Below, one piece after another: positions 3,531-32,206 of a stretch of 36,561 bases of DNA. Source of the stretch: an uncultured Lysobacteraceae bacterium (GTDB lineage: Bacteria; Pseudomonadota; Gammaproteobacteria; Xanthomonadales; Rhodanobacteraceae); contig CAMLSI010000004.1 in NCBI GenBank assembly GCA_946482585.1, positions 1 through 36,561 on the forward strand, given 5' to 3'. How positions within the stretch are numbered: the stretch's first letter is position 1; every line of letters starts with the position of its first letter. The notes below the pieces were generated by a model. The model was not told the origin of the DNA, ran no database searches, and saw nothing but the letters and a program-made list of their open reading frames with translations. A program made the position numbers and the translations under genes.

Positions 3531-6428
3531 TCAGGGCTGGAACCCGTTCCGGAAAATCACGTCGGCCATGCTGTAGCTGCCCGTGATCGACTGATTGGTC
3601 AGTGCCGAATAGGCCAGCACGATGACGAGGTAGTTGCCCGCGGCCGGCGGGTTCGCGATGTTGCAGGTTTCGTCAGCGGTCGCACCGGCGGATTCGCAGA
3701 TCGTTTCGCCGTTGAGCTGGACCGTGAGGTCGGCATCTTCGCCGGCCGCACCGTTCGTCACGAAACTCAGGTTCGTCGCGCCCGTCGGCACGAGCAGCGA
3801 ATAGCGCAGCTCGTCGTTCTGCGGCGCGCTCTGGCCCGACACGGTCACGCCGTTGGTCAGCGGAACCGGCGGCGCGAAGAGGCGCACGACGCGCGAGAAG
3901 CTGGCGCTCGCGCCGTCGTCGTCGGTCACGGTCAGCACGACCGTCTTAGCGCCGTAGGTCGCATACGTGTGGCTCGGACTCGCGAGCGTCGATGCCGGAC
4001 TGCCGTCGCCGAAGTTCCAACTGTACGACGCGATGGTGCCGTCGAAATCGATCGCGCTGCTCGTGAAGCTCGCGGTCAGGTTGTTGACGGTCGCGCTGAA
4101 ATCCGGCGTCGGCGGCGCATTGCTCGCGCTCGCGCTCAGCACCACGCGCCAGGCGCCGCGGCTGTAGCTGCCCGCGGTCAGCACGTGCGGCGTGTCGTCG
4201 ATCTCGAGATCGCTGATCACGATGCCGAGCGGCAGGCCGGCGGAGAACGGGCTGAAGTTGTCGCCGCCGTCGGTACTCTCGTACACGCCGACGTCGGTGC
4301 CGACGAAGATGCGATTGGTGTTGAACGGATCGACCGCGACGCTGTTGGCCGGCACGTTCGGCAGACCCGCGCCGACTGCGATCCAGTTCGTGCCGCCCGT
4401 GGTCGAGCGGTACAGCCGCGACGCGCCGAAGCCCGCGCGCGTGATGAACACGCGCTGCGCGTTGGTCGGATCCATCGCGATGTCGGAGACGTTGCCGCCC
4501 GGATAGTCGCCGGTGACGTTCGTGAACGTCGGTGACGGCACCGACGCGTCGGGACTGAAATAGATGCGGCCGCCCGAAGTGCCTGCATAGGTCGGCATCA
4601 GCACGCCGATCAGCTGTGGCGTGACCACGCTCGCGGCACTGGCCATGTTCGGCGACACGGCCGTCCAGCTGTTGCCGTCGGTCGTCGTGCGGTAGAGCGT
4701 GTTCGACGCGACGAACAGCTGGTTGCCGGCGACGGCCAGTGGCGTGACCCAGGGGAATTGCGCCGACGCGACGAGGCCGGTGCGCGGCACGAGCTCGAAA
4801 CTGCCGAGACTGCCGCTGGCGTTCGAGCGCACGATGGTCGGGAAATTGCTGCTCGGATAACTGGTCTGGAACACGCGCGACGGCTGGGTCGGATCGACCG
4901 CATTCATGAACCCGTCGCCGCTCGCGAAGGTGAGCCCCCACTGCAGGCTGGTGCGGCGTCCCGACGAACCGTTGTCCTGTGCGCCGCCGAACACGATGTT
5001 GACGTCGGTCGGATGCACGGCGATGTCGTAGAACTGCATGATGTTGAGATTGGCGTTCATGTTGACGTACGACAGGCCGCCGTCGTCGGTGCGCCAGAGG
5101 CCGCCGTCGGTGCCGACCCAGAAGCGGTTCGGATTGGTCGCCGAATAGCGCACGACGTGCGTGTCCTGATGCACTTTCTGCGACGTGCCCCAGGTGCTCG
5201 TCAGCGCGGTCAGTTGCGTGCCGCCGTTGGTCGACCGTGCATGGCGGATCGTGCCGACGAGGATCGTCGACGGATCGGTCGGATGCACCGCGATCGTCAG
5301 GTTGTACGTGCACTGGCCTTCGCAGGCGTCGGCCTGGGTCTGGGTCCAGTTCGTGCCGCCGTTGGTCGTCTGATACAGGCGGTCGCCGATCAGTGCATAG
5401 AGCGTGTTGCTGTCGCTGGGCGACATCGCCAGGCGCAGGCGCGAGCCGCTCGGATTGAGGCCGGTATTGACCGGCGTCCAGTTCGCGCCGCCGTCGGTCG
5501 ATTTCGACACGCCGCTGTTGATGAGTCCCGCGTACACCGTATTCGTGCCGGGCACGAACACGATGTCCTCGACGTTGGTGCTGAGCACGCGCGTCCAGGT
5601 CAGTCCGCGGTCGGTCGAACGGAACACGCCGGCGCCGTTGAGCGTGCCGCTCGCGCTGCAGTTGCCCGCCCCGCCGGCGAGGATCACGTTGCTGTCGGTC
5701 GGCTGCACCGCCACCGCGTTGACGATGGACAGCGGCATCGCGGTCGCGCCTGCGCCGTTGCGCGCGTTCCAGGTCGCGCCCGCGTCGGTGCTGAGGAACA
5801 CGCCCTGACCGAAATAGCCGGCGCAGCCGCCGCCGTTCTTGTCGCCGGTGCCGACCCAGACCGAATTCGAATCGTTCGGATCGAGCGTCACCGCGCCGAT
5901 CGGCAGGGTGCCGACCTGATCGAACACCGGTGTCCAGCTCGTGCCCGCGTTCGTCGTCTTCCAGACGCCGCCCGCCGCCGAGCCGATGTAGACCGTATCC
6001 TCGTTGCCCGGCACCGGCGTCACGGCGTTGAGGCGCCCGGCGACGCGGCCCATGATCCAGTCCGTCATCGTCATCGACGAAGGACCGACGGGTTCCCAGC
6101 TTTCTCCGGCCGCCTGCTGGATCGGATCCTTGCTGCGGCGCAGTGCCTTCAGCGTCTCGACGGCCGCCGCGCGTTCGCGTCCGGCATCGGCATTCCCGCG
6201 CAGGCCGCGGGAGCGTTCGAACCAGAGTTGCCGCTGCTCGATCTGCCAGGACTCTTCGCGGCCTTGGCCCTCCTCGTGGTCGCGGCCCTTTTCATGGCCT
6301 TCGCCCTGTTCGAGCAATTCCTCGATGTGCTTGGCCTCGTCGTGCGAAGCCAGGACCGGCGGCGCCGGCAACACCACAAGACCGGCCAGCGCGCCCAACG
6401 CGCGCCAGCCGCGAATCGACTTCCGCAT
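3531..6428 (-). CDS. Secreted BNR/sortilin-like beta-propeller with PKD and PPC domains
   Basis: This is a 965-residue exported protein. It starts at ATG 6428 behind GGGGAG and has a signal peptide cleaved near A27. Residues 28-95 are highly charged (Glu/His/Arg-rich). Residues about 100-765 contain many BNR/VPS10-like blades with STDGGxxW-type motifs (KSTDGGANW, TTNGGTNW, ESTDGGDNF), as in exported glycoside-binding and sialidase-like propellers. A PKD domain follows (about 772-850; SYSWNFGDG, HTYATYGAKTVVLTVTDDDG), then a pre-peptidase C-terminal (PPC) domain (about 855-955). The last residues, ADVIFRNGFQP, match the C-terminal motif found in four other exported proteins in this window. No protease or hydrolase active site was recognised; binding or scaffolding is a reasonable guess. 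Confidence 0.9.
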   Translation of the reverse strand: MRKSIRGWRALGALAGLVVLPAPPVLASHDEAKHIEELLEQGEGHEKGRDHEEGQGREESWQIEQRQLWFERSRGLRGNADAGRERAAAVETLKALRRSKDPIQQAAGESWEPVGPSSMTMTDWIMGRVAGRLNAVTPVPGNEDTVYIGSAAGGVWKTTNAGTSWTPVFDQVGTLPIGAVTLDPNDSNSVWVGTGDKNGGGCAGYFGQGVFLSTDAGATWNARNGAGATAMPLSIVNAVAVQPTDSNVILAGGAGNCSASGTLNGAGVFRSTDRGLTWTRVLSTNVEDIVFVPGTNTVYAGLINSGVSKSTDGGANWTPVNTGLNPSGSRLRLAMSPSDSNTLYALIGDRLYQTTNGGTNWTQTQADACEGQCTYNLTIAVHPTDPSTILVGTIRHARSTNGGTQLTALTSTWGTSQKVHQDTHVVRYSATNPNRFWVGTDGGLWRTDDGGLSYVNMNANLNIMQFYDIAVHPTDVNIVFGGAQDNGSSGRRTSLQWGLTFASGDGFMNAVDPTQPSRVFQTSYPSSNFPTIVRSNASGSLGSFELVPRTGLVASAQFPWVTPLAVAGNQLFVASNTLYRTTTDGNSWTAVSPNMASAASVVTPQLIGVLMPTYAGTSGGRIYFSPDASVPSPTFTNVTGDYPGGNVSDIAMDPTNAQRVFITRAGFGASRLYRSTTGGTNWIAVGAGLPNVPANSVAVDPFNTNRIFVGTDVGVYESTDGGDNFSPFSAGLPLGIVISDLEIDDTPHVLTAGSYSRGAWRVVLSASASNAPPTPDFSATVNNLTASFTSSAIDFDGTIASYSWNFGDGSPASTLASPSHTYATYGAKTVVLTVTDDDGASASFSRVVRLFAPPVPLTNGVTVSGQSAPQNDELRYSLLVPTGATNLSFVTNGAAGEDADLTVQLNGETICESAGATADETCNIANPPAAGNYLVIVLAYSALTNQSITGSYSMADVIFRNGFQP

Positions 6429-6586
6429 ACGAATCTCCCCAAGTCGTCGTACAGACCTGCCGGACGCAAGCCGCAGAGAGGCCGATCCTAAGGCGGATCC
6501 GCAGACGGCTCATAGGCCGAAAATCACGGACCCATAGTCCGATTCGCCATACCGGTGAAGGCGGCGCGGATTCGCCGCCGTACGGT

Positions 6587-7009
6587 TCAGCGCTGCAGTC
6601 GCAGCGCAGGCCAGTTACCAACGCCGAACGCGATCAGCAGCAACAGGCTCCAGCCGTTGAACAGGCGGGGCAGCGACGGCAGCGTGGCGTGCAGGTCGGC
6701 GAGCCAGGTCTGTCCGTGCAGGAACAGGCCGCCGACCGCGAGCAGCAGGAGCGCGAGCAGCAATGCGGCGACGCCGCGCCGCTCCCAGCGCGCATCGAGC
6801 AAGGTGTCGCGCTCGGCGCGCCGCGCGATCGCAGCGGCGAATCCGGTCGGCGGCGCAGAGGACAGCGGCGTGCGCAGCGCGCGCGCGAGCAGGCGATACG
6901 CGCCGGCGTCGTCGCGGCTCGCGTCGCCGCGACGCTCCGCCTCGAACGCGCGTTCTTGTTTCGCCCACTCCTGTTCCTGATCCGGGGTCAGCGGCGGCAA
7001 GGTATTCAT
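6587..7009 (-). CDS. Membrane partner of ECF sigma factor (putative anti-sigma)
   Basis: This 140-residue protein has a polar, charged N-terminal half (residues 1-77) and two hydrophobic segments (about 80-97 and 118-136). Its ATG overlaps the sigma factor stop codon by four bases (ATGA), with a GGGAGAAA ribosome binding site inside the sigma gene. The position and topology fit an anti-sigma factor holding the sigma factor at the inner membrane. No zinc-binding HxxxCxxC motif is present, so it is not a classical ZAS-type anti-sigma. The assignment rests on gene order. A hairpin at 6560-6579 (7-bp GC stem) lies just past the stop and may end the transcript. Confidence 0.8.
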   Translation of the reverse strand: MNTLPPLTPDQEQEWAKQERAFEAERRGDASRDDAGAYRLLARALRTPLSSAPPTGFAAAIARRAERDTLLDARWERRGVAALLLALLLLAVGGLFLHGQTWLADLHATLPSLPRLFNGWSLLLLIAFGVGNWPALRLQR

Positions 7010-7569
7010 GGCGTTTCTCCCAGACGGTTCTGCAGCAGCTCTCGCAGGCGCAGGCGGCTGCGGAACAGATGACTCTTGATCGTGCCGGCCGGCAATCCGC
7101 TGATCTGCGCGATCTCGGGTATCGCGAGTTCGTCGAGGTGGTACAGGGTCAGCAGCATGCGCGGCAGCGGCGGCAATGCATCGATCGCCGCGTGCAGATG
7201 ACCGCGCAGCTCGGTGTCGGCCCAGGCCGATTCCAGATCGAAGCCGTCGCTTTCCTGCAGCAGCGGATCCGCCTCGCCGTCGGCAGCGCTGTCGACGAGC
7301 GGCACCTGTTTCTTCTCGAGATGACGCAGCGCGACCGCATAGGCGACGCGGCCTATCCACGACTTCAGCGTGCTCTCGTAGCGGAACTGGTGCAGGTACT
7401 GGTGCACGCGCAAGAATGCCTCCTGACACAACTCGCGCGTGTCCTCCGGATGCCGCACGAGCCGCTGGATGATGTGCCAGCACAGGCCCTGATGGTCGGC
7501 CACGAGACGCTCGAACGCGCCCGCGCGCCGTGCGAGCACGGCATCTACCAGCACGCGGTCCGGGTTCAT
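7006..7569 (-). CDS. ECF-type RNA polymerase sigma factor (module 1)
   Basis: This is a 187-residue sigma-70 family protein of ECF size with regions 2 and 4 only. Region 2.2 reads RELCQEAFLRVHQYLHQF (residues about 45-62), with the usual acidic residue before LxQE, followed by TLKSWIGRVAYAVALRHLEKK. Region 4 is at about 125-182 (ALPPLPRMLLTLYHLDELAIPE, then the helix-turn-helix GLPAGTIKSHLFRSRLRLRE). ATG 7569 gives the family's usual N-terminus; the frame stays open upstream but is not family-like. It is transcribed with its membrane partner through a 4-bp overlap and is divergent from the gene at 7726, leaving 156 bp for both promoters. Autoregulation is common in ECF systems but no promoter motif is certain here. 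Confidence 0.93.
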   Translation of the reverse strand: MNPDRVLVDAVLARRAGAFERLVADHQGLCWHIIQRLVRHPEDTRELCQEAFLRVHQYLHQFRYESTLKSWIGRVAYAVALRHLEKKQVPLVDSAADGEADPLLQESDGFDLESAWADTELRGHLHAAIDALPPLPRMLLTLYHLDELAIPEIAQISGLPAGTIKSHLFRSRLRLRELLQNRLGETP

Positions 7570-7725
7570 GGTCGGCGTCGCTCCATGCGCCGCAAGATAC
7601 GGAATCGGCGGCGGCGGTTGCAGGACGCGACGCCGCAGCGCGGCCGCAACGGCTTGCAACCGCCCGGCCCGCGCGCGTATCCATTGCCGCGACCGGCCCA
7701 GATGCCGACGGTTTGCGGAGCGCCC

Positions 7726-8049
7726 ATGTCCACTCAGTTCCTGGTTCCCGTTGCGCTGTTCGGCAGCATCGCCTACGTGATCAAGCTGCTCATCGACGCG
7801 CGCATGCGCATCCTGATGATGCGCGCCGGCAGCTCCGACGAGCTGATCCGCTCCATCCTCGACGGCGAGGCCCTGCAGCGGCGCTACGCGTCGCTGCGTT
7901 CGGGCATCACGCTGATCGCACTGGCCGGCGGCTTCGCACTGATCCAGGTGATCGGCTGGAACGACATCACGCCGGGCGCGATCGCCGTGATCGCCGCGGC
8001 CGTCGGCGTCGGCAACCTGACCTATTTCGCGCTGACGAACCGGCGCTAG
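7726..8049 (+). CDS. Small two-helix membrane protein, DUF6249-like
   Basis: This 107-residue protein starts at ATG 7726 behind GCGGAG. The first hydrophobic segment (about 4-24) is followed by a charged cytoplasmic-type stretch (RMRILMMRAGSSDELIRSIL, then DGEALQRRYASLR) and a helical hairpin-like hydrophobic region (about 60-102). The arrangement and the SSDELIRSIL stretch remind me of DUF6249 membrane proteins, but I cannot confirm the family from memory. Function is unknown. It sits divergent to ECF module 1, so it could be part of that sigma factor's regulon, which is only an inference. Confidence 0.82.
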   Translation: MSTQFLVPVALFGSIAYVIKLLIDARMRILMMRAGSSDELIRSILDGEALQRRYASLRSGITLIALAGGFALIQVIGWNDITPGAIAVIAAAVGVGNLTYFALTNRR

Positions 8050-8123
8050 CACGGTTGGCCGGCGAGCCCCAAGGCGGGCCGCTCGACGGCAATCAACATT
8101 TACCACAAAACAAGGATTACACC

Positions 8124-8651
8124 ATGCCGCAACGCCTGATGGCCGTCGCGCTGGGCGCGCTCGTCTTCGTCGCGTCCGCCCGCGCCGAAAAACCGCGACT
8201 CGCGCCGTCGCGACCGGGCTCGCCCGAGCTCCGCGCCACGATCCGGGACAAAGATGCCGCGCTGTTCGCAGCCGTGTTCGACCGCTGCGATTTCGATGCG
8301 ATCGCCGCGCTGGTCACGCCGGACTTCGAGTTCTATCACGACCAATGGGGCCAGACCGCCGATTCCGGTGCCGCGTTCGTCGAGTCGATCCGCAACCTGT
8401 GCGCGCGGCAGGCGCGCGGCGAAGATCCGAAATCGCGGCGCGAACTCGTCGCCGACAGCGTGTTCGTGCAGCCGCTGGGCGACTACGGCGCGATCGAGAC
8501 CGGCGTGCACCGGTTCTATCGCCTCGCGCCGGGCGAGGCCGACACGCTCGCCGGCGAGGCGCGGTTCGCGCACGTGTGGAAGAAGGACGGCACGCAATGG
8601 CGGCTCGCGCGCGTGCTGAGTTACGAGCATGCCGCAGCGGTCGAGCCCTAG
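8124..8651 (+). CDS. Exported SnoaL/DUF4440-like protein (NTF2 fold)
   Basis: This is a 175-residue protein. ATG 8124 follows AAGGA at 8112-8116 and gives a signal peptide ending in ASARA/EKP (cleavage near residue 21). The mature part has the pattern of the NTF2-like SnoaL/DUF4440 fold: a helix with DKDAALFAAVFDRCDFDAIAALV, then PDFEFYHDQWG, a long helix FVESIRNLCARQ, and C-terminal strands ending RFAHVWKKDGTQWRLARVLSYEH. Such proteins bind small molecules or are isomerase/cyclase-like; no particular activity can be given. The last base of its stop codon (TAG 8649-8651) is also the first base of the MITE-like element that follows. Confidence 0.87.
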   Translation: MPQRLMAVALGALVFVASARAEKPRLAPSRPGSPELRATIRDKDAALFAAVFDRCDFDAIAALVTPDFEFYHDQWGQTADSGAAFVESIRNLCARQARGEDPKSRRELVADSVFVQPLGDYGAIETGVHRFYRLAPGEADTLAGEARFAHVWKKDGTQWRLARVLSYEHAAAVEP

Positions 8652-8858
8652 CAGGCTGTTGAGATACTGTCTGCCAGGGCGATCCCGGCAGGGATCGCAC
8701 GAGGGTCGATCGCGCAAGCGATTGATTCTCAGGGAACGCGCGCACGCTTCGATTGCGCCGCTCGATGGAGAAATCGGCGTTCGCCCGTTTCTCCACATCC
8801 TGCCGGACGCGTCGCTGCAGCGCGCCTTGCGGGCGGCGCGGCCGCTGCAACAGACTGC
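8651..8858. mobile_element. MITE-like element with imperfect terminal inverted repeats
   Basis: The left end GCAGGCTGTTG (8651-8661) and the right end CAACAGACTGC (8848-8858) are inverted copies matching at 10 of 11 positions. Between them lie four hairpins: 8679-8698 (8-bp perfect stem, GGCA loop), about 8708-8727 (stem closed by a GCAA tetraloop), one built on GGAGAAA/TTTCTCC, and one built on TGCAGCG/CGCTGCA. There is no full transposase gene, though the minus strand is open across the element. No convincing target duplication was seen. It could be a non-autonomous insertion or a palindromic intergenic repeat. Confidence 0.45.
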
Positions 8859-8883
8859 GATCCCGCCCCAGCCGCTGCGTGCC

Positions 8884-9657
8884 ATGGCCAAAGACATTCC
8901 AGCCGCAGTCCGCGAAATCTGCCTGTCGTTTCCGGAATCCGAAGAGTACGTGTCACACGGCTCGCCGAATTTCCGTGTGCGCGGCGGCAAGACTTACGCG
9001 AGCTTCGCGCTCAATCATCACGGCGACGGCCGCGTCGCGCTCTGGCTCGGCTCCCCGCCGGGCGCCCAGGAGCAGCACGTGCGCGACGAACCGGAATACT
9101 TCTTCGTGCCGCCCTATGTCGGGCCGCGCGGCTGGCTCGGCGTGGAACTCGACAAGGGGCTCGACTGGAAGCGCGTCGCCGGTCTCGTGCGCGACGCCTA
9201 CGAAAAAGTCGCCCCCGCCGCGCTGAGCAAGCAGATCGGCAAGACCATCGTCATCGTTCCGCCGAAGGCGCAGATGAGCCCCGAAGAGCGCGACCCCATG
9301 CTCGCGTCGGCCGTGCAGAAGCTCGTCGAACCGCTGCGCGAGTTCTGTCTGTCGTTGCCCGAAGTCGTCGAGGACCCGCGCTTCGGCGCGCCGTCATGGC
9401 AGGCAGGCAAGCGCACGTTCGCGATGGCGTATCGCTACGACGAGACGCTGACCTTCGGCTTCTGGGTCGGCGTCGAGCAGCAAGGGCTCTACACCGGCGA
9501 CAAGCGCTATTCGATACCGCCGTACATGGGCCACAACGGCTGGATCGCGCTCAGGGTCGGCGCGAAGCCGAACTGGAAGGAAATCCGCGGTCTCGCGCTC
9601 CACAGCTATCGCCACTTCGCGCTCAAACGCATGCTCGCGAAGCTCGGCGCCGGATGA
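8884..9657 (+). CDS. Tandem MmcQ/YjbR-fold protein (DUF419 duplication)
   Basis: This 257-residue protein contains two copies of the MmcQ/YjbR fold, normally found singly in proteins of about 115 residues. Copy 1 spans about 5-110 and copy 2 about 146-252. The copies align directly: VREICLSFPE with LREFCLSLPE, PPYVGPRGWLGVEL (76-89) with PPYMGHNGWIALRV (212-225), and LDWKRVAGLVRDAY (93-106) with PNWKEIRGLALHSY (229-242). ATG 8884 puts the first domain at the N-terminus, as in single-domain relatives; upstream in-frame sequence runs into the MITE-like element. The fold resembles CyaY-like DNA-binding proteins, but the function of the family is not settled. No signal peptide, so cytoplasmic. 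Confidence 0.88.
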   Translation: MAKDIPAAVREICLSFPESEEYVSHGSPNFRVRGGKTYASFALNHHGDGRVALWLGSPPGAQEQHVRDEPEYFFVPPYVGPRGWLGVELDKGLDWKRVAGLVRDAYEKVAPAALSKQIGKTIVIVPPKAQMSPEERDPMLASAVQKLVEPLREFCLSLPEVVEDPRFGAPSWQAGKRTFAMAYRYDETLTFGFWVGVEQQGLYTGDKRYSIPPYMGHNGWIALRVGAKPNWKEIRGLALHSYRHFALKRMLAKLGAG

Positions 9658-9667
9658 CGCGATCGCG

Positions 9668-9687
9668 TCGCGCGCGGCAGCGCGCGA
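9668..9687. terminator. GC hairpin between convergent genes
   Basis: TCGCGCGC (9668-9675) pairs with GCGCGCGA (9680-9687) around a GGCA loop; wobble pairing extends the stem by about two bases. It lies in the 67-bp gap between the convergent MmcQ/YjbR and kinase genes. There is no T tract, so termination is inferred from position and stability. Confidence 0.45.
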
Positions 9688-9724
9688 TGCGGCGATTCAC
9701 AGTGACCGCGGGCGCCGCGATGAT

Positions 9725-12445: not shown

Positions 12446-12516
12446 CTGTGCTGAAGGGGCGGCGCCGGCGCCGTCATGCGCCGGTTCTCCGGGGAGGAAA
12501 TCGTCGCAGATCGCGG

Positions 12517-12552
12517 CGTTACCCATCCGTTACCGCACCGTTATCCATCCGT
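12517..12552. promoter_or_regulatory. Three tandem 11-bp direct repeats, putative winged-helix operator
   Basis: CGTTACCCATC (12517), CGTTACCGCAC (12528) and CGTTATCCATC (12539) follow each other with an exact 11-bp period, and a fourth unit keeps only CGT. On the kinase strand the core is GGTAACG, GGTAACG, GATAACG. Eleven-base spacing is that of PhoB-type tandem winged-helix sites. It lies between the divergent winged-helix kinase and the secreted protein gene at 12683. Confidence 0.55.
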
Positions 12553-12682
12553 GCCTACGAAGTTCGTCGTGAACACTAGCATGCGTCCCCTGCGCCGGCC
12601 CATGGCATGTCCATGACCCGCACGGAAACGGCTTCGAACAGCACGGACGCCGGCGCAGGTTCCCCTGAATTCGGAGAGACTC

Positions 12683-14299
12683 ATGTCGAACGCGAAACTG
12701 GGCGCCGCGCTTGCTGCGGCGCTGCTCTACGCGCCGCTCGCCGCGGCGCAGACCGCCTCCTGGCGGGTCGTCGCCGGCGAAGACGGCCGTGTCATCACCG
12801 CCGGCCTGCCCAACGGCACCAGCCGCAGCTTCTACGACGAGATCCTCGGCGATGCCGGCGGCGACCTCGTCGGACTGCGCATATCGAGCCCGGACAGCCT
12901 CGCCGGCTACTGGGCGCGCCAGCTCGGCGCGCTCGTCCGCTATGCCCAGCTCGGCGTCGCCGGCACGACCGGTCCCGGCCGCAGCGGCGCCGAGGCGGCG
13001 CACGTGTTCCAGACCATCTATTCCGGCGAAGGCGCTGCGTCGCCCGACGGCCGGCGCCTGCTGACGGCGCGTGCCGGCGAAGCCGGTTCGTCCACGAATT
13101 CGAGCTACGGCATGTGGCTCTGGGACGGCACGCGCAACCTCGAGATCGCCCGCGCGCAGACCGAGGGCCTGCTCGGGCCGGGCTTCGGTCCCGGCTGGCG
13201 CTTCGCCGATTCCTCGACGTTCGCGACCGGCCGCGCGCTGACCGGCGGCAGTGCCCTGCTCGATGCAAGCGTGCTGAGCCCGACCAACGGCAGCAGTCAT
13301 GCCATCGTCAAATACGTGCCCGGCATCGGCAACAAGCCGTGCCTGCGCGCCGGCACCGCCGACGCCGCGCTCGCGCCGGGGCTCGCCGCCGGCGATACCT
13401 TCCAGACCAACTGGGACATGTACGCCGATCTCAGCGTCACGCGCGACGGCCGTGTCTATGGCGTCTTCGACGCGAGCGGCTCGCGCGGCGGTATCTGGGA
13501 AATCTGCAGCGGCGCGCCGCGCGCGATCGCAGTCGACGACGAAACCGGCGCACGCGGTCCCGACCTCGGCATCGCCACGGCGACCTTCACCAACGAATTC
13601 GAGCCGGCCTATCCCGGCATCGGCAATCAGTTCTACTTCTTCAATTACTTCCGCCGCACGTCCGGCGCAGTCAGCGAATACGGCCTGTTCTGGCACGACG
13701 GCGCGCGCAACCGCCCGCTGGCTTACGGGGACGTGTCGGGCTACTACGGCCCGAACTGGGGCGACGCGACCTGGGCCAATTTCAATCCCGATTCGCTGAG
13801 CGCCAACGGCGCCTACGCCGCATTCAACGCACGGGTGCAGACGGCCGACAGCAGCCCCACGGGCTTCTGGCGCGTCCGCACGGGGCAGCGGCCCGAGCTC
13901 GTCGCGGTGATCGGCATACCCGGCACCTACGGCCCCGAGCCGAACCGCACCTGGAGCCATTTCGGGGCCAGCGCCGTACTCGCCAACGGCGGCCTCGTAC
14001 TCGAGGCGCGTACGAATCCCGGCGACGTCAACGGACTCTGGCTGCTCGAACCCGGTCGCGCGCCGCGCAAGCTGCTCGAACCGGGCCAGACGATTTCGAT
14101 CGCGACCACGACCGGTACCGTGCAGACCACCGTGTCCGCTTTCGACCTGCCGGGCGAAGGCTCCGACAACAGCCGAGGACGCGACCGCTGGATCGGCATG
14201 GACGGCACCGTGCTCGTCTCGGTGATCGTACCGATCTACGGCGAAGTGCTGCTCGCGACGCAGGCCTCGGACCGGATCTTCAGGGGCGGCATGGAATAG
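12683..14299 (+). CDS. Secreted protein with repeats and C-terminal IFRGGME motif
   Basis: This is a 538-residue exported protein. ATG 12683 follows CGGAGAG and gives a signal peptide cleaved near APLAAA/QTAS. The body consists of repeated stretches of the kind TNGSSHAIVKY, SVTRDGRVYGVFDAS, SANGAYAAFNARV, LANGGLVLEARTN and GMDGTVLVSVIV, each followed by a description-like strand. This recalls the NxxGxxxAR tandem repeats (DUF7453-like) of surface-anchored propellers, but I am not certain of the family. There is no visible catalytic motif. The last residues, ASDRIFRGGME, match the C-terminal motif shared with four other exported proteins here. It is transcribed away from the winged-helix kinase and may be its target. 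Confidence 0.88.
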   Translation: MSNAKLGAALAAALLYAPLAAAQTASWRVVAGEDGRVITAGLPNGTSRSFYDEILGDAGGDLVGLRISSPDSLAGYWARQLGALVRYAQLGVAGTTGPGRSGAEAAHVFQTIYSGEGAASPDGRRLLTARAGEAGSSTNSSYGMWLWDGTRNLEIARAQTEGLLGPGFGPGWRFADSSTFATGRALTGGSALLDASVLSPTNGSSHAIVKYVPGIGNKPCLRAGTADAALAPGLAAGDTFQTNWDMYADLSVTRDGRVYGVFDASGSRGGIWEICSGAPRAIAVDDETGARGPDLGIATATFTNEFEPAYPGIGNQFYFFNYFRRTSGAVSEYGLFWHDGARNRPLAYGDVSGYYGPNWGDATWANFNPDSLSANGAYAAFNARVQTADSSPTGFWRVRTGQRPELVAVIGIPGTYGPEPNRTWSHFGASAVLANGGLVLEARTNPGDVNGLWLLEPGRAPRKLLEPGQTISIATTTGTVQTTVSAFDLPGEGSDNSRGRDRWIGMDGTVLVSVIVPIYGEVLLATQASDRIFRGGME

Positions 14300-14483
14300 G
14301 CCATTGACCGGATGGCCGCGGGACACCGGTGGGCCGGCCGAGCATCGATGACCCGGCGACGGGCAGGCCCGGCGGTGACCGACGTGCGCCTCGGCGGCCT
14401 CGCACCGCTTGCCGGCGCGTACCTCTCCTCCTCAGCCGTCGCGGTTCCGGCCCAGTGCTCGGTTGCCCATTCCCGCAACCTCG

Positions 14484-14504
14484 CCGCCTGCCCCTGGCAG
14501 GCGG
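14484..14504 (+). terminator. Hairpin downstream of the secreted protein gene
   Basis: CCGCCTGCC pairs with GGCAGGCGG around a CCT loop (9-bp stem), about 185 bp past the stop at 14299 and 65 bp before the next gene. There is no T tract. It may end the upstream transcript or structure the leader of the next gene. Confidence 0.35.
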
Positions 14505-14569
14505 GGGCTTCCGGCGCAACGCGGTCCGCCTCGCCCCTTCACCCTCCAGACACCATCAAGGATTCCGCA

Positions 14570-15484: not shown

Positions 15485-15590
15485 GCGTTCTCAGGATTCT
15501 CGCAGTACTCATCGACGGCGACGTCCGTCGGCCAGGCGCGCACAGCCCCGCCGGCGGCCGCCGCGGACGGCGAGTCCGCCGGTCACCTCC

Positions 15591-15654: not shown

Positions 15655-15726
15655 ACCTTTTGCCCCGGCCGCCCGCCCCCCTCTTCGACGCGGCCGCGAG
15701 CCCCGCCCCAAGGGGCCTTCCGGCAA

Positions 15727-15760: not shown

Positions 15761-15761
15761 C

Positions 15762-16676: not shown

Positions 16677-16722
16677 GCCTGCTCCGCGCCGCGGCTGCAG
16701 GCCGCGGCGACATGGCGAATCG

Positions 16723-20939: not shown

Positions 20940-21007
20940 CATTTCTCCTCGTCCCGGCGAATAAGCTAGCCGGAGCCAGCCCGGCTCCGCTGCATTCCCC
21001 GCCCCGC

Positions 21008-22821: not shown

Positions 22822-22956
22822 AACACCGGGGTCGTGCCGAGCCGCGCGACACGACCAAAGTCGCAGTGATTCGCCGCGGGCCGGCCCCAGCTCGATCGCC
22901 CGCGGCGACGCTTCATCGCGCCGCGTGGCTTTTCGTCCCGCTCTGGAGGTTTCACC

Positions 22957-23985: not shown

Positions 23986-23986
23986 A

Positions 23987-26176: not shown

Positions 26177-26184
26177 GCGAACAC

Positions 26185-26730
26185 TCAGGCCGCCTCGAGC
26201 TGCGACGCGAGCCAGCGCCGCGCGTCGGCCCAGTCCCGTTCCACGGTGCGCTCGGAAACGTCGAGCGCGAGCGCGGTTTCGCTCAGCGACAGACCGGTGA
26301 AGAAACGGCATTCAACCACGCTCGCCTGTCGCGGCTCGACGCGCGCGAGATCGCGCAGCGCGTCATCGAGCGCCGCGATGCGGCGCGCCTCGGCGAGCAG
26401 CGCGGCATCGTCGTCGGGCGCCATCGGCAGCTGTTCCTGCTGACGCAGACGACGCCGCGCATGATCGCAGACCACGCGGCGCATCGCGCGCGAGGCGACG
26501 TTCAACAGATGCGCGCGCGAGGCGAGCGGCAGGTCCGAGGCATTGCCCAGTCGCAGGTAGGACTCGTGCAGCAGCGAAGTCGTGTCCAGCGTGTTGATCC
26601 AGCGGCTGCGGTTCATATGACGCCGCGCGATGTGCTTGAGATCCGCATAGACCAGCACGGCCAGCGCGTGCTGCGCGTGCGCCTCGCCGTTGCGGCAGCG
26701 CTCGAGCAGCGCCAGGAAATCGTCGTCCAT
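26185..26730 (-). CDS. ECF sigma factor of the kinase-linked type (module 3)
   Basis: This is a 181-residue sigma factor of the TIGR02999 / Sig-70_X6 type, close to ECF43. The region 2.2 stretch reads NTLDTTSLLHESYLRLG (residues about 46-62): where the other two ECF factors in this window have E/D-L-x-Q-E/D, this one has T50, T51 and S52 before LLHE. Region 4 is at about 128-178 (RDLARVEPRQASVVECRFFTGLS, then ETALALDVSERTVERDW). In Vibrio EcfP a threonine in the same region is phosphorylated to create the missing negative charge, so phospho-activation by the adjacent kinase is a fair inference. ATG 26730 is divergent from the heparinase-like gene, and that operon may be a target. Confidence 0.93.
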   Translation of the reverse strand: MDDDFLALLERCRNGEAHAQHALAVLVYADLKHIARRHMNRSRWINTLDTTSLLHESYLRLGNASDLPLASRAHLLNVASRAMRRVVCDHARRRLRQQEQLPMAPDDDAALLAEARRIAALDDALRDLARVEPRQASVVECRFFTGLSLSETALALDVSERTVERDWADARRWLASQLEAA

Positions 26731-26940
26731 CCTGCCTTACCTCATCGACCAGAACCGCGCTTGCGCTGCAAGCCATGTGCCCTCGCCGCCGCGGCGCGCT
26801 GCCGTCCGTCGGCCCGCTGCGGCAGACCAACGGCAGTGGGACCGCTCACGCGGCGGATACGACCGCCGGTCGGTCCGATGGCGGACGCCGCATCGCGGCG
26901 ACGCAACCGCGAGCGTCGATTCCGTCCTGAGGGAGCTTTC

Positions 26941-29900
26941 ATGAAACGCGTGCTGGGCTGTGTGTTGATGCTGGCGTTCGGCGTGCTAACGGCCGGCAGG
27001 GGACAAACCGAACCTTTGACGACGCATCCGCGCCTGTGGATCACCGCCGCCGACCTGCCCTCGTTGCGGCAGTGGGCCGCGAACGGCAATCCGGTCTATG
27101 CCAATGGCCTGCGCCAGCTCGCGCAATCCTCGGCGCAGGCCATGGACAGCGGCGAGATTCCGGACGAGGACAACGGCGGATCGACCTGGAGCCCGGTCAA
27201 TACCGAGGAATATGCCGCGCTGTTCGCGTTCATGAGCCTCGTCGATCCGGATGCGGCCGCGCGCGCGCAGTGGGCGCAGCGCGGACGCCTCTTGCTCATG
27301 CACGTGATCGACCGCGTCGACGCCTGCATGCGCGCGTCGCCGCCGACGCAGCAGGGCAGTTTCTGTTCGCTGTCCTTCAGCGTGTCGGACCGCTCGCGCT
27401 GGACCGGCGCGGCATTCCCGCTGGCGGCGGACTGGCTGCAGGGCGCGACCACCGCGTCGGGACAGCCCGTGCTCACCGCGCAGGACAAGGCCACCTTGCG
27501 CCGCGTATTCCTGATCTGGTCGCGACTGAGCCTCGAAGCCTATCCGAATCCGTACAACAACCCGCCGGAATTCAGCCTGCCGGTCGGCACCATCGGCGAA
27601 CCGCTGCTGCGTCTTTCCACCGACCTGCGCCGGCATCGTCTGCGCTTCGCCGGCAACAATTACTTCGCAGGCCACATGCGCAACATCGGCCTGCGCGCGA
27701 TCGCGATCGATGCGGCCGACGACGTGCCCGACGCACAGACGCCCGCCAGCTATCTGCGCCTGAATGCGAACGGTCAGGCCGTGGTCGCGCCGCTCGACGC
27801 GTCGCCCGGCGCGCTGCGCAACCTGCGCCGCGACGTGCTGCAGGGCTGGCTGTTCGTGCAGGACTATCTGCTGCGCCACGACAGCCGTGGCGGCCTGCCG
27901 CAGGAAGGCATGGAATACGCGCCCACGTCGATCGGCATTCCGGCGCAATTCCTCTACGGACTCCAAACCGCGGGCTACGCCGATCTCGCCGGCCAGAACC
28001 AGTGGGGCGCGCAGGTCGCCGGCCTGGCCACGAATCCGTTCTATCGCGCGATCGCCTATGGACTCGTGCATTCGCAGAGTCCGCGCACCGCGGCCAGTCC
28101 GTTCGGCACGGTCCACAAACCGGCGTGGTACGGCGACGGCGAGCACTACTACCAGAACGACCCCATCGACATCCTCGGTCCGGTCGGCCTGCATGCGATG
28201 CGTGTCGGCGACACGGAGACGGCGAATCTCGTGCGCTGGGTGCAGCGCCACATGCCGCCCGACGGTGCGGCCGGTTTCGCGTCGCGCACGCGCGCCAACG
28301 GCAGCAGCGGCGACGTGCTGTCGAGCCTCATGTATTTCCTGCTGTTCGATCCTGCGGCGCCGGGCAGCGCGGCGAACGCGCCCGATCCGCGGCCGTCGCT
28401 CGCGCTGTCGTTCTGGTCCGAGGGCATGGGCCGCCTGCTCTCGCGCACCGACTGGGGCGCGGACGCGCGCTGGTTCAACTACCGGCTGAGCTACAACGCC
28501 GTCGACCACCAGCACGGCGACGGCAACCTGTTCGAGTTCTATCGCAACGGCGAATGGCTGACCAAGGCCACGATCGGCTACGGCAACGACGGCGGCGCGA
28601 CCGACTACAAGAACGGCGTCACCGTGCAGAACGTGCTCGGCGCGTCGGTCGATCCCGAAAGCTATCTCGGCAATCGCCTGCGTCGCGGCGCGCAGATGCC
28701 GCAGGCGCGCAGCGCAGCCGATCCCCGGGTGCTCGCGCGCAGCGAGACGACGCGCTACAGCTTCGCGAGCGGCGATGCGACGAATCTGTACAACGCCTAC
28801 TACGAACCCGGCGATGCGACCCCGGCCGCACAGCGCGCGCTGGACGTGCAGCACGTGAGCCGCGCGGCGCTCTGGCTCAAACCCGATCACGTCATCGTCT
28901 ACGACCGCGTGCAATCGGCCACGGCGCAGCGCGCCAAGCGCTTCTGGCTCAACCTGCCCGATCAGTTGCCCGCCGTGCCGCAGATCGCCGGCAACCGCGT
29001 GACCTCGGTCACGCCCGGCGGCCAGCGCCTGCACGTGGCGAGTCTGCTGCCCGCCGCAAAGACCCTTGCGATCGTGACCGACGATCCGATCATGTCGCCC
29101 AGCGTCAACGGCTGGGCACTGGGCGACGAGGACAGCTTCATCCAGGAACGCAGCATTGCCGGCGGCCCGCAGAAATTCGCGACGCGCCTGCGCGTGGAGG
29201 CCGACGGTGCGCCGCTGCAGACGCGCTTCCTGCATGTGCTGCAGGGAGCCACGGGCACCACCGCGCCGGATCCCGCGGCCGTCGCCGCCTCGGAAACCGC
29301 GGCGAACTGCCCGACGCCGGCCGGCGCGTTCGACGGTGCGATCGTCGGCACGAACAGCGTCTGGTTCGCACGCGACGTCAGTCCCGTCTACGGCTGTTTC
29401 GCGCTACGCACGCCGATCGGCACGACGCAGCACCTCGTCACCGGCCTCGCACCGTACGCGAGCTTCCAGGTGACGCGCACGACGGCCGGCGCCGACCAGA
29501 CCCTGACCGTACAACCGGGCGGTCCCTGGCTCGCCGACGCCGGCGGCGTGCTGCGCATCGACATCGGCATCACGCCGCCGGCACGCGGGCTCGCCGTCGT
29601 CGATGGCACACAACTGGATTTTGGCAATACGGCAATCGGCACGGCACCGACGCTGACGGTCACGCTGACCAATCGCGGCACGGCGACGTTGACTGGCATC
29701 GCGTTCGGGCTCGCGGGCGCGCCGGAATTTGGCCTGGTGCCGGGCGGCTGCCAAGCGACGCTCGCCGTCGGCGCGAGCTGCACGCAGCCGGTGCGCTTCG
29801 CGCCGGCCGCGTACGGCTATCGCAGCGGCACGCTCGGCATCGCCTCGGATTCGTCCGAACCGCTCGCGCCGCTGCCGCTGCACGGGATCGGCCTCGATGG

Positions 29901-29943
29901 CGATCGCCTCTTCGCCGACGCCTTCCAGGCGGTGTCGCCATGA
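26941..29943 (+). CDS. Secreted heparinase II/III-like protein with choice-of-anchor D domain
   Basis: This is a 1000-residue exported protein. ATG 26941 follows GAGGGAGC; the signal peptide ends near LTAGRGQ. The central part resembles the heparinase II/III fold: a long helical (alpha/alpha toroid) N-terminal region, then YNAVDHQHGDGNLFEFYRNG (residues about 518-537; D522, H523, H525, D527), the typical C-terminal beta-domain signature of polysaccharide lyases. A choice-of-anchor D/ASH-type domain follows at about 888-990 (LDFGNTAIGTAPTLTVTLTN). The protein ends GDRLFADAFQAVSP, matching the C-terminal motif of four other exported proteins. Uronic-acid-containing polysaccharide is the likely substrate class; the exact glycan is not known. 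It overlaps the next gene by four bases. Confidence 0.88.
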   Translation: MKRVLGCVLMLAFGVLTAGRGQTEPLTTHPRLWITAADLPSLRQWAANGNPVYANGLRQLAQSSAQAMDSGEIPDEDNGGSTWSPVNTEEYAALFAFMSLVDPDAAARAQWAQRGRLLLMHVIDRVDACMRASPPTQQGSFCSLSFSVSDRSRWTGAAFPLAADWLQGATTASGQPVLTAQDKATLRRVFLIWSRLSLEAYPNPYNNPPEFSLPVGTIGEPLLRLSTDLRRHRLRFAGNNYFAGHMRNIGLRAIAIDAADDVPDAQTPASYLRLNANGQAVVAPLDASPGALRNLRRDVLQGWLFVQDYLLRHDSRGGLPQEGMEYAPTSIGIPAQFLYGLQTAGYADLAGQNQWGAQVAGLATNPFYRAIAYGLVHSQSPRTAASPFGTVHKPAWYGDGEHYYQNDPIDILGPVGLHAMRVGDTETANLVRWVQRHMPPDGAAGFASRTRANGSSGDVLSSLMYFLLFDPAAPGSAANAPDPRPSLALSFWSEGMGRLLSRTDWGADARWFNYRLSYNAVDHQHGDGNLFEFYRNGEWLTKATIGYGNDGGATDYKNGVTVQNVLGASVDPESYLGNRLRRGAQMPQARSAADPRVLARSETTRYSFASGDATNLYNAYYEPGDATPAAQRALDVQHVSRAALWLKPDHVIVYDRVQSATAQRAKRFWLNLPDQLPAVPQIAGNRVTSVTPGGQRLHVASLLPAAKTLAIVTDDPIMSPSVNGWALGDEDSFIQERSIAGGPQKFATRLRVEADGAPLQTRFLHVLQGATGTTAPDPAAVAASETAANCPTPAGAFDGAIVGTNSVWFARDVSPVYGCFALRTPIGTTQHLVTGLAPYASFQVTRTTAGADQTLTVQPGGPWLADAGGVLRIDIGITPPARGLAVVDGTQLDFGNTAIGTAPTLTVTLTNRGTATLTGIAFGLAGAPEFGLVPGGCQATLAVGASCTQPVRFAPAAYGYRSGTLGIASDSSEPLAPLPLHGIGLDGDRLFADAFQAVSP

Positions 29944-31100
29944 GGTGCGCGCGGCATTTCTTCCGCACGGTCGCGCTCATTGCGGCGACGTCGGCCGGCG
30001 CGGCGATCCCCCCGGATTTCTCGCTGCAGACTTATGCGACCGGACTCGACCGGCCGGTCGCGCTGGCCGCGGCCGGCGACGGTTCCGGCCGCCTGTTCGC
30101 CGCGGAAATCGGCGGCCGCGTGCGCGTGATCCGCAACGGCGCCGTTCTGCCCGCGCCGCTGCTCGATCTCGGCGCGCTCGTCAGCACCGGCGGTTGCAGC
30201 GGCGAATGCGGACTGCTGGGCCTGGCTTTCGCACCGGATTTCGCGGCGACCGGCCATGTATTCACCCTGCACACTGATCCACAACGCAACAATGTGATTC
30301 TGCGACACCGGGTTCCGCCCGGCAGCGACGTGGCCGATCCGGCCAGCCGCGTCGCGGTCATGACCATCGGCGACGGCAGCGGCCAGCACAACGGCGGCGA
30401 TCTGAGGTTCGGCCCCGACGGCATGCTCTACATCAGCGTCGGCGACGCGGCCGGCGGCGGCGCGCCGGCGCAGCAGCTGTCGTCCCTGCGCGGAAAGATC
30501 CTGCGCATCGACGTGCGCAACCTGCCCTACGCGATACCGCCCGGCAATCCTTTTGCCGGCGATGCGCCGGGCGCCGGCACTCGCGACGAAATCTGGCACT
30601 ACGGGCTGCGCAATCCGTGGCGCATGAGCTTCGACCGGCGCAGCGGCGAGCTGTGGATCGCCGATGTCGGCGGCAACGGCGGCGCGTTCGAGGAAATCAA
30701 TCGCGCACCGGCCGGCGCGAGCGGACTCAACTTCGGCTGGTACTGCTATTCCGGCACGCAGCAGGTCAATTGCTCGCTGCCGGCCCAGCACGCGCCGTTC
30801 ATCGCGGTCCAGACGTCTACCCTGGGTTGTGCGGCGGTCGGCGGCTTCGTCTTCAACGGCCCGGTCGCGATGCTGCGCGGCACCTATCTGTATGGCGACT
30901 ACTGCAGCGGCGGGATCTGGGCCAGCGGCACCGGCGCGACCGCGACGCCGCAGGCGCTGTTCAACAACAACCGGCCGCTGACCACGTTCGGCGAAGACGA
31001 CGCCGGCTGGGTCTACATCGCCGAACAGGCCGCCAACGCCCGTGTGCTGCGCCTGTATTCCGAGCGCATTTTCGCCGACGGCCTGCAGCCGACGCAGTAA
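29940..31100 (+). CDS. Secreted GSDH-type (PQQ-dependent-like) sugar dehydrogenase
   Basis: This is a 386-residue exported six-bladed propeller of the glucose/sorbosone dehydrogenase family. ATG 29940 overlaps the upstream TGA (ATGA), so the two genes are translationally coupled. Visible family motifs are GQHNGGDLRFGPDGMLYISVGD with H150, LRGKILRIDV, YGLRNPWRMSFD, LWIADVGGN, and FGWYCYSG. The signal peptide ends near SAGAA/IPPD. It should bind PQQ in the periplasm or outside and oxidise sugars or aldoses; the exact substrate is unknown. It ends YSERIFADGLQPTQ, again the shared C-terminal motif. Four cysteine-containing segments (GGCSGEC, YCYSG, NCSL, YCSGG) suggest disulfides. Confidence 0.92.
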   Translation: MRCARHFFRTVALIAATSAGAAIPPDFSLQTYATGLDRPVALAAAGDGSGRLFAAEIGGRVRVIRNGAVLPAPLLDLGALVSTGGCSGECGLLGLAFAPDFAATGHVFTLHTDPQRNNVILRHRVPPGSDVADPASRVAVMTIGDGSGQHNGGDLRFGPDGMLYISVGDAAGGGAPAQQLSSLRGKILRIDVRNLPYAIPPGNPFAGDAPGAGTRDEIWHYGLRNPWRMSFDRRSGELWIADVGGNGGAFEEINRAPAGASGLNFGWYCYSGTQQVNCSLPAQHAPFIAVQTSTLGCAAVGGFVFNGPVAMLRGTYLYGDYCSGGIWASGTGATATPQALFNNNRPLTTFGEDDAGWVYIAEQAANARVLRLYSERIFADGLQPTQ

Positions 31101-31129
31101 TCTCTCCCCGACTCCGCGAGGAACGTCCC

Positions 31130-32206
31130 ATGAAACACCCGCTCATCTGTACGTTGTTGGCCGCCGCGGCCACGACCGCCGCCGCCGAACCGCTGCCGCG
31201 CTTTCCGCCGGGCGCGGTCTGGAACCGCAACATCTCGACCGCGCCGGCGCATGCGCAATCGGCCAGCATGATCTCGACCCTGAACGGGCTCGGCGGTTTC
31301 GGCTTCGGCCGCATGCAGATCGATTTCGGCATGAATGTCGTGCGTGCCGCCGCCGGCAGTCCGACGCGCACCATCGTCGACTATCCGTACGACGACTACT
31401 ACTCGCCCGATTGCGAACCGCTCGGCTCGTCGATGCCGGTGCCGGCCAACGCGGCGATCGAGGGTACGAACGGCCTGACCTGCGCCAACGACAGCGAAGA
31501 CTGTCATCTGCTCGTCGTCCAGGGCGACACCTTGTACGAGGCCTATCACGTGACCGCGAGCGGCGCGAACGCGCTCGAAGCGCAATGCCTCGTGAAGTGG
31601 CACCTGAAGGCGGTCTATCCGGGCCAGGGCCGCGGCGAGCACTGCACCAGCGGCGATGCGGCCGGCTTTCCGATCGCGCCGCTGCTGTTCAACGCGGACG
31701 AAGTCTTCGCCGCGATGCAACCCAATGCCAGCGGCGATCTCGGCCACGCGATCCGCTTCATCCTGCCGAACCCGCGCATGGCCACCGACGCATCGCTCGG
31801 TGGCGACGAGGGCAAGCTCTACGTGCGTCCCGCGACGCACGCGGGCGGACCGTCGGGACCGTCCGGCACTGTCCCCTACGGCGCCCGCCTGCGTCTGCGC
31901 GCCGATTTTCCGATGGCGAACTATTCGCCCGCGGCGCAGGTGATCCTGCGCACGATGCAGCGCTACGGCATCGTGCTCGCGGACGGCGGCAACGTCGCCC
32001 TGACCGCCGAAAGCGATCGCTACACCACGCATACCTGGGCCGAACTCGGCATCGACTCGCGCGAGTTCGATCAGACCGCGGGCGCGACCGACGTCATGGT
32101 CACGGACTTCCAGGTGCTCGACACCGGCGCGCGCATCGGCGAGACCTATCAGTGTGCGCGCACGACCGTCGTGGCCGACACGATCTTCGTCGACGGCTAC
32201 GAGTGA
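31130..32206 (+). CDS. Secreted protein of unknown family with IFVDGYE C-terminus
   Basis: This 358-residue protein starts at ATG 31130 behind GCGAGGAA and has a signal peptide ending near TTAAA/EPL. I do not recognise the family. The mature part has six cysteines (SPDC, LTC, EDC, AQC, EHC, YQC), consistent with three disulfides in an exported protein, and aromatic-rich strands such as DYPYDDYYSPDCEPLG. There is a run LRLRADFPMANYSPAAQVIL typical of a beta/alpha fold. Its end, ADTIFVDGYE, is the shared C-terminal motif. It lies 29 bp after the sugar dehydrogenase and 4 bp before an aldo/keto reductase, so it probably belongs to the same operon; a role in carbohydrate binding or breakdown is a guess. 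Confidence 0.85.
   Translation: MKHPLICTLLAAAATTAAAEPLPRFPPGAVWNRNISTAPAHAQSASMISTLNGLGGFGFGRMQIDFGMNVVRAAAGSPTRTIVDYPYDDYYSPDCEPLGSSMPVPANAAIEGTNGLTCANDSEDCHLLVVQGDTLYEAYHVTASGANALEAQCLVKWHLKAVYPGQGRGEHCTSGDAAGFPIAPLLFNADEVFAAMQPNASGDLGHAIRFILPNPRMATDASLGGDEGKLYVRPATHAGGPSGPSGTVPYGARLRLRADFPMANYSPAAQVILRTMQRYGIVLADGGNVALTAESDRYTTHTWAELGIDSREFDQTAGATDVMVTDFQVLDTGARIGETYQCARTTVVADTIFVDGYE

What the first reader, a model, noticed from the sequence alone, without database searches (positions are those of the whole stretch)
3531..32206. Five unrelated exported proteins share a C-terminal IF-x-DG-(F/Y)-(E/Q) motif
Seen directly: the ends are ADVIFRNGFQP (3534-3566, minus), SDRIFRGGME (14267-14296), GDRLFADAFQAVSP (29899-29940), SERIFADGLQPTQ (31059-31097) and ADTIFVDGYE (32174-32203). 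Consensus [DEA]-x-[IL]-F-x-[DNG]-[GA]-[FYLM]-[EQ] within 5 residues of the stop or at it. All five proteins have signal peptides but differ in architecture (BNR propeller, repeat protein, heparinase-like, GSDH, unknown). Exported proteins here without it (M23 peptidase, PHP protein, PQQ propeller) and all cytoplasmic proteins lack it. No transmembrane helix or basic tail follows, unlike PEP-CTERM, GlyGly-CTERM or LPXTG. I know of no named family for it. It may be a sorting, secretion or processing signal.
Basis: partly seen in the sequence, partly recalled or inferred. Interest (0 to 1): 0.85.

Follow-up and report, generated by a model that had tools for sequence, protein, structure and literature searches.

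The report
Portable address tag on exported proteins
Dozens of unrelated exported proteins in one order of bacteria end (or, less often, begin) with nearly the same short peptide, which sits where relatives carry membrane or surface anchors, so it looks like an undescribed protein-addressing tag whose reader is still unknown.

Summary
Five unrelated signal-peptide proteins in the window end in the motif; a six-frame scan finds five hits, all 0-4 residues from a stop, against 0.055 expected.

It is a lineage-wide system. I-F-x-[DNSG]-G-F-E occurs up to 75 times per genome in the window's order (116 of 299 genomes with a hit, 63 with ten or more). In a Pseudomonadota sample only 3 of 398 genomes exceed two hits. 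In fetched order loci 175 of 193 readable hits lie within 15 residues of the stop.

A longer form, FxDGFESG[DN]xxxW, is a C-terminal tag in Acidobacteriota. And the tag can sit just behind the signal peptide, where untagged DUF1800 relatives carry a lipoprotein cysteine.

Best reading: a portable, non-covalent localisation tag. A second type II secretion system with PDZ-bearing GspC is the leading reader candidate (60 of 63 tag-rich genomes), but it is neither sufficient nor strictly necessary. Rhombosortase does not fit; exosortase is found in half.

The parts
3534..3566 (-). C-terminal tag ADVIFRNGFQP of a BNR/sortilin-type propeller + PKD protein (gene 3531-6428)
14267..14296 (+). C-terminal tag SDRIFRGGME of an exported protein without Pfam match (gene 12683-14299)
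29899..29940 (+). C-terminal tag GDRLFADAFQAVSP following a choice-of-anchor D domain (gene 26941-29943)
   Evidence: NCBIfam choice_anch_D at residues 879-974 of the frame given
31059..31097 (+). C-terminal tag SERIFADGLQPTQ of a GSDH propeller (gene 29940-31100); unpaired coil after the last strand (367-373), mean pLDDT 55 in the last six residues
32174..32203 (+). C-terminal tag ADTIFVDGYE of a secreted family without Pfam match (gene 31130-32206); last nine residues pLDDT below 50
26941..32206 (+). three consecutive tagged genes on one strand

Best explanation
The motif is a portable linear localisation tag of exported proteins. Shown: it is conserved as a peptide, is added to bodies that end without it in relatives, is enriched on signal-peptide proteins, is carried by many unrelated proteins per genome, and sits either at the C-terminus or just behind the signal peptide, at slots where homologues carry a lipid, transmembrane, SLH or type IX anchor. 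Modelled: in two window proteins it is a flexible extension. Inferred: after Sec export and folding the tag stays exposed in the periplasm and is bound, without covalent processing, by an envelope receptor that sends the protein to or across the outer membrane or holds it there. Leading reader candidate (inferred, about 0.3): the periplasmic part of a second type II secretion system, 'type A', with PDZ-bearing GspC and its own GspD clade.
For: Window: 5 of 5 hits at stops, 0.055 expected in six frames. Order: 116 of 299 genomes with a hit, 63 with ten or more, up to 75; reversed-pattern control 0-2 per genome. Family sample: 13 of 59, eleven with 10-46, two with one, 46 with none. Pseudomonadota sample: 70 of 398 have a match but only three, all seen in the family sample, have more than two. 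Position: 175 of 193 readable non-redundant hits within 15 residues of the stop, 154 within 5. Peptide-level conservation: all four Gly codons used, A/T-rich codons in G092, G110, G144, core 83% identical against 33% and 32% in 60 bases upstream and after the stop between 19 copies in G005. Signal peptides: 38 of 52 against 134 of 711 by the lenient rule, 27 of 52 against 110 of 711 by the strict one. Anchor slot, C-terminus: choice-of-anchor Q (9), D (3), J (2) and myxosortase- or rhombosortase-dependent M36 families (7, 6; may overlap) among 146 tailed C-termini; GSDH relatives end plain, tagged, with a Por tail, SLH domains or helix+Arg. Anchor slot, N-terminus: of 120 listed DUF1800 homologues a loose pattern finds the tag in 82, a lipobox in 21, both in 3, neither in 14 (a few false calls); none has the tag at the C-terminus by the stricter pattern. 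Flexible tail. Type A GspD in 60 of 63 tag-rich genomes against 58 of 236 others.
Against: No experiment; no receptor identified. 14 of 52 tailed genes failed even the lenient signal-peptide rule, several by the look of them through missed starts or a missing basic residue. Outside the three rich genomes the Pseudomonadota sample has about 74 single hits against about 29 of the reversed pattern (hand count), so the motif is not unknown to ordinary proteins. For the type II reader: 29 type A genomes have no strict tag; G160, G165 and G220 are tag-rich without type A; G102, G115, G143 and G216 have 17-38 loose hits without type A (positions of most of these hits not checked). The Fisher test is not corrected for kinship; on the type A GspD tree the tag label is strongly clustered (6 changes, shuffled mean 15.3). 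GspC with a PDZ-like end is found in both tag-rich and tag-free type A loci. The tagged Thermoanaerobaculia genome G748 shows no GspD over the cut-off; its best secretin hit (L357) groups with that of G326 (L358), which by eye lies in a pilus (PilQ) operon.
Confidence: 0.66

Rival explanations
1. Linear type II secretion signal: the tag is read by GspC/GspD of the type A system and decides which exported proteins cross the outer membrane, in genomes that also hold an Xps-like type B system.
For: 60 of 63 tag-rich genomes have type A GspD against 58 of 236 others. Among 60 chosen genomes most tag-rich ones have two GspD over cut-off, while G084, G097, G107, G109, G125, G155, G242 (0-3 strict tags) have one. 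Type A GspC has T2SSC + PDZ; the EpsC PDZ directs one substrate in Vibrio (PMC12369372, abstract and discussion read). Tailed proteins include families that are type II cargo elsewhere (ExeM/NucH 3, CpaA 2 of 146; cargo status recalled). A flexible exposed position suits folded cargo.
Against: Not sufficient (29 tag-free type A genomes) and not strictly necessary (G102, G115, G143, G216, G160, G165, G220). PDZ-type GspC in both groups. No type II system shown in tagged G748. PMC12369372 stresses the lack of a universal linear signal.
Confidence: 0.3
2. Surface-retention tag: proteins are exported by any route and the tag docks non-covalently to a surface structure (outer-membrane receptor, S-layer, polysaccharide), replacing lipid or CTERM anchors.
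For: The tag exchanges with lipoprotein cysteines at the N-terminus and with CTERM-, SLH- and Por-type ends at the C-terminus; it occurs at either end and inside proteins.
Against: No receptor or structure identified; the exchange fits an export signal equally well.
Confidence: 0.3
3. Processing signal: a protease or transpeptidase cleaves at the motif and attaches or releases the protein, as with LPXTG, PEP-CTERM or GlyGly-CTERM.
For: Mostly C-terminal, one lineage, many unrelated substrates. Exosortase-like proteins in 31 of 63 tag-rich genomes.
Against: Rhombosortase over cut-off in 1 of 63 tag-rich genomes, seven more within 12 bits below it; exosortase missing in 32 of 63 and mostly a partial match where present. 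No hydrophobic helix or basic end in the tails. Motif also directly behind the signal peptide, where cleavage would remove almost nothing.
Confidence: 0.12
4. No localisation role: a structural cap, or a short stretch spread by recombination.
For: Short; often follows beta-rich domains; the long form resembles the first strand of lectin-like domains (recalled).
Against: Low-confidence coil in two models; same peptide on unrelated folds and at either end; flanks unalike while codons vary.
Confidence: 0.08

Closest known systems
PEP-CTERM, GlyGly-CTERM, MYXO-CTERM and LPXTG sorting signals (PMC3237569, abstract read)
   Same: short C-terminal sequence on many otherwise unrelated signal-peptide proteins of one genome; sporadic distribution; same bodies carry different tails in other lineages
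   Different: no transmembrane helix, no basic cluster; can also sit behind the signal peptide; no matching protease found
Type IX secretion C-terminal domain (Por tail)
   Same: C-terminal export/attachment determinant; a GSDH relative (P0220) carries it behind the same body
   Different: that is a folded domain of about 80 residues (recalled); this is a flexible peptide of about nine residues
Type II secretion substrate recognition (GspC PDZ, VesB Ig fold: PMC12369372, abstract and discussion read; Pel3 loops: PMC7949064, abstract read)
   Same: exported folded proteins; flexible stretches contacted by GspC/GspD; genome co-occurrence in this order
   Different: known determinants are structural and composite; no shared linear tag described there
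Lipoprotein export signal of Bacteroidota surface lipoproteins (recalled)
   Same: short linear motif next to the mature N-terminus
   Different: needs a lipidated cysteine; here the tag replaces it

Membership tests
GlyGly-CTERM / rhombosortase | motif + transmembrane helix + basic tail at the C-terminus | tested here: not met
   in 126 of 152 tails the chain ends 0-4 residues after GFE; no helix before it in the logo
GlyGly-CTERM / rhombosortase | genome encodes rhombosortase (TIGR03902 over cut-off) | tested here: not met
   1 of 63 tag-rich genomes; seven more at 72-83 bits, cut-off 84
PEP-CTERM / exosortase | tripartite PEP-motif tail | tested here: not met
   no NCBIfam tail model on the window proteins at E 1
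PEP-CTERM / exosortase | co-occurring exosortase (PF09721) | tested here: inconclusive
   31 of 63 tag-rich genomes, mostly about 150 of 254 positions; tag-free genomes not tested
LPXTG / sortase | LPXTG-type motif and sortase | not tested
   motif plainly different; sortase not searched
Type IX secretion CTD | folded C-terminal domain matching Por_Secre_tail | tested here: inconclusive
   not among the 25 NCBIfam and 25 Pfam families shown for 146 tailed C-termini; 92 and 98 families matched in all, the rest not shown
Type II secretion substrate | Sec/Tat signal peptide | tested here: met
   38 of 52 tailed called genes by a crude rule; all five in the window
Type II secretion substrate | genome has a type II system | tested here: inconclusive
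   GspD over cut-off in 51 of 60 chosen genomes; type A GspD in 60 of 63 tag-rich genomes; exceptions
Type II secretion substrate | secretion lost in a gsp mutant | not testable with these tools
   needs an experiment

The most novel reading that the evidence does not exclude
The peptide D-x-I-F-x-D-G-F-E is a transferable linear secretion signal for a type II secretion system: read by the type A GspC/GspD periplasmic domains, working from the N-terminus, a linker or the C-terminus of folded cargo, and sorting cargo between two type II systems of one cell; the long Acidobacteriota form is its relative.
Probability: 0.27. Interest if true: 0.93.

Novelty: new variant of a known kind. Interest (0 to 1): 0.82.

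Why it matters
It would add an abundant, undescribed class of protein address to a bacterial order and to part of Acidobacteriota, make much of the surface or secreted proteome of these organisms predictable from sequence, and offer a transferable handle.

Tried and rejected
T2SSK (PF03934) as a type II marker was useless: it matched 281 of 299 genomes and rang in B. subtilis, probably through its helix-hairpin-helix part. PDZ presence in GspC does not separate tag-rich from tag-free type A genomes. Rhombosortase and exosortase as partners. A DNA repeat as the source: rejected by flanks and codons. Literature: literal searches for IFADGFE and similar strings gave 18 papers, none relevant by title; for GFESGD and similar 2, not relevant by title; wider searches listed nothing that, by title and start of abstract, describes this tag. 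So I found no description; these searches cover open PMC text only. Limits: the GspD survey used 60 chosen genomes; the order loci used for position statistics were fetched because they hold a hit, and the logo includes a few hits from outside the order; the gene caller, signal-peptide rule and tail classes are home-made regular expressions; 146 of 166 non-redundant tailed C-termini were scanned; the lists are the best 120 of thousands each.
Full report
Observation. A motif scan of all six frames finds those five and nothing else, each 0-4 residues from a stop; a Markov null of the window gives 0.055 hits and 0.005 near a stop. The five bodies are unrelated by BLASTP (best E 0.36) and pass a crude signal-peptide rule; Pfam and NCBIfam give different domains or none. 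NCBIfam finds a choice-of-anchor D domain just before the tail of the heparinase-like protein. The organism seems near Tahibacter: the fifth protein is 98% identical to an unnamed P0001 and 78% to one of Tahibacter aquaticus.

Scale. No genome is held for the window, so I used G001, the genome of the best GSDH relative L001, a Rhodanobacteraceae MAG. Its 11 pattern hits, against none for the reversed pattern, include nine near a stop, one just behind a signal peptide and one inside an Rhs-like protein. In 59 genomes of its family 13 have hits: eleven have 10-46, two have one, 46 have none. In 299 genomes of the order 116 have at least one hit and 63 have ten or more, with a maximum of 75 in G169; the reversed control is 0-2 per genome. 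In 398 Pseudomonadota genomes 70 have a match, but only G001, G005 and G015 have more than two; the other 67 hold about 74 hits against about 29 of the reversed pattern in the whole sample (hand count), so single chance or unrelated matches are common. Of 46 genomes behind named loci, 12 had a match: the Lysobacterales/Lysobacteraceae genomes G063 and G082 had 53 and 12, ten others had 1-2, and the Lysobacterales genome G214 had none. In these samples, then, the strict short form in bulk is a trait of this order, with strong contrast between genomes.

Anatomy. From fetched order loci I collected 197 non-redundant hits; four had no stop in the stretch. Of 193 readable, 154 lie within 5 residues of the stop, 21 at 6-15, 3 at 16-40 and 15 further away. 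Of 28 hits read from the Pseudomonadota loci 7 were within 15 residues of a stop, mostly in short frames. The logo of 152 tails reads D(71%)-x-I-F-x-[D 55%, N 34%]-G-F-E with 0-4 more residues in 126 (I, F, G, F/Y and E are set by the search pattern). Codons vary synonymously, and G092, G110 and G144 use A/T-rich ones; in G005 the core is 83% identical between 19 copies while 60 bases upstream and after the stop are 33% and 32% identical. So the peptide is what is kept. In AlphaFold models of two window proteins the tail is low-confidence coil behind a confident body. With a home-made gene caller, 38 of 52 tailed genes had a signal peptide by a lenient rule against 134 of 711 others (27 and 110 by the strict rule); 22% of signal-peptide genes and 2.4% of the rest were tailed (the stretches were chosen for holding hits, so absolute rates are inflated).

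Not only C-terminal. Several hits sit directly behind the signal peptide (L088, L121, L125, L171, L175, L187, L231, L279, L280, L287) or well inside the protein (L139, L158, L163 twice, L168, L178, L288, L085). Six complete N-terminally tagged proteins have no C-terminal tag. DUF1800 is the clearest case: in two complete proteins the domain runs to within three residues of the end. Among the 120 nearest homologues listed, none has the tag at the C-terminus; a strict pattern finds it near the N-terminus in 39 and a loose one in 82, with a lipobox in 21 others, both in 3 and neither in 14. The loose pattern has false calls (P0259, P0275 and P0294 match outside the slot) and the lipobox rule misses some (for example P0317). 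Tag and lipid anchor thus almost exclude each other at this slot.

Exchange at the C-terminus. The fifth window protein belongs to a family that reaches Acidobacteriota. Of the 120 best listed relatives a regular expression called 48 short-tagged, 44 long-tagged and 28 neither; at least two of the 28 (P0079, P0082) are short-tagged by eye. The long form is [IL]FxDGFESG[DN]xxxWSxxxP; the long-tagged rows that carry a name are Acidobacteriota. In the Thermoanaerobaculia genome G748 the pattern for GFESG[DN] has 25 hits against one for the control, while the 47 other genomes of that search have 0-5; of 22 hits that I read in G748, 20 are within 25 residues of the stop. GSDH relatives end plainly, with the short or long tag, or carry a Por tail, SLH domains, a TIGR03437-type extension or a helix with arginines; by regular expression 9 short, 6 long and 105 neither, with several tags missed. 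Among 146 tailed C-terminal pieces (of 166 non-redundant), NCBIfam matched choice-of-anchor Q in 9, myxosortase- and rhombosortase-dependent M36 peptidases in 7 and 6 (these may be the same members), choice-of-anchor D in 3 and J in 2, and ExeM/NucH in 3. Homologues with other functional tails are also what the GlyGly-CTERM authors reported for their signal (PMC3237569, abstract read).

Reader. Rhombosortase passes its cut-off in 1 of 63 tag-rich genomes; exosortase in 31 of 63, mostly as partial matches. GspD was surveyed in 60 chosen genomes; 51 pass the cut-off, and most tag-rich ones show two. The two kinds are separate clades, 22-27% identical between them. Type A lies next to GspC with T2SSC and PDZ domains, in three of four loci read also before E; type B has an Xps-like order with D last (names partly by eye). 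A type A GspD query over the 299 order genomes, set against tag counts, gives 60 of 63 tag-rich genomes with type A and 58 of 236 others (the set was read off by hand, identity about 44% or more, fragments counted; 20 further genomes with weaker relatives were kept apart, and counting them gives 60 of 63 against 78 of 236). This is not corrected for kinship. On the tree of 47 type A GspDs the tag label needs 6 changes against 15.3 when shuffled, so few independent events underlie the count. Against the idea: 29 type A genomes have no strict tag; G160, G165 and G220 have 23-49 tags without type A; with a looser pattern G102, G143, G115, G216 and G084 (38, 23, 20, 17, 12 hits, positions mostly unchecked) have tags without type A, while G065 and G075 (14, 11) are type A genomes with the loose form only. 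GspC with a PDZ-like end is present in 27 tagged and 20 untagged type A loci alike. G748 has no GspD over the cut-off; its best secretin hit (L357) groups with that of G326 (L358), which by eye sits in a pilus operon. The type II reader is therefore a lead, not a result.

Known work. PMC12369372 (abstract and discussion read) shows that the EpsC PDZ domain is needed for one substrate and notes the lack of a linear universal signal; PMC7949064 (abstract read) describes flexible loops as a composite signal; PMC13393428 (abstract read) treats GlyGly-CTERM as an independent targeting motif that needs a second secretion signal. PMC10765051 (passages read) places a surface-layer protein NpdA beside 12 gsp genes, with orthologues in Tahibacter amnicola and Dokdonella; the signal-peptide protein just behind type B gspD in L340 and L349 may be that protein, and it has no tag (inference).

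Verdict.

Noticed in passing
L290, L315, L319-L338 (G748); P0023-P0120: A longer C-terminal tag, FxDGFESG[DN]xxxW(S), abundant in a Thermoanaerobaculia genome and in Acidobacteriota homologues.
   Followed up: partly
L085:1501 region; L337: The motif lies inside large proteins (L085 Rhs-like, L337 a 1197-residue frame); no explanation.
   Followed up: no
L193, L201, L287: Two copies of the motif in tandem, at the C-terminus (L193, L201) or behind the signal peptide (L287, short then long form).
   Followed up: no
L340:12409-13872, L349:11625-13295: Proteins of 488 and 557 aa with signal-peptide-like starts and no Pfam match just behind type B gspD, the kind of place described for the surface-layer protein NpdA; untagged.
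   Followed up: partly
31 of 63 tag-rich genomes: About half of tag-rich genomes encode an exosortase-like protein, often about 185 residues, matching mostly the second half of PF09721.
   Followed up: no
window 35612-36532, minus: Two neighbouring open frames repeat the same long stretch (..LPLPDAVHVPPP..QVQVQV..), an internal repeat near the window end.
   Followed up: no
G065, G075, G084, G102, G115, G143, G216: Genomes that prefer a first residue other than Ile in the motif (xFxDGFE), which the strict pattern undercounts.
   Followed up: partly
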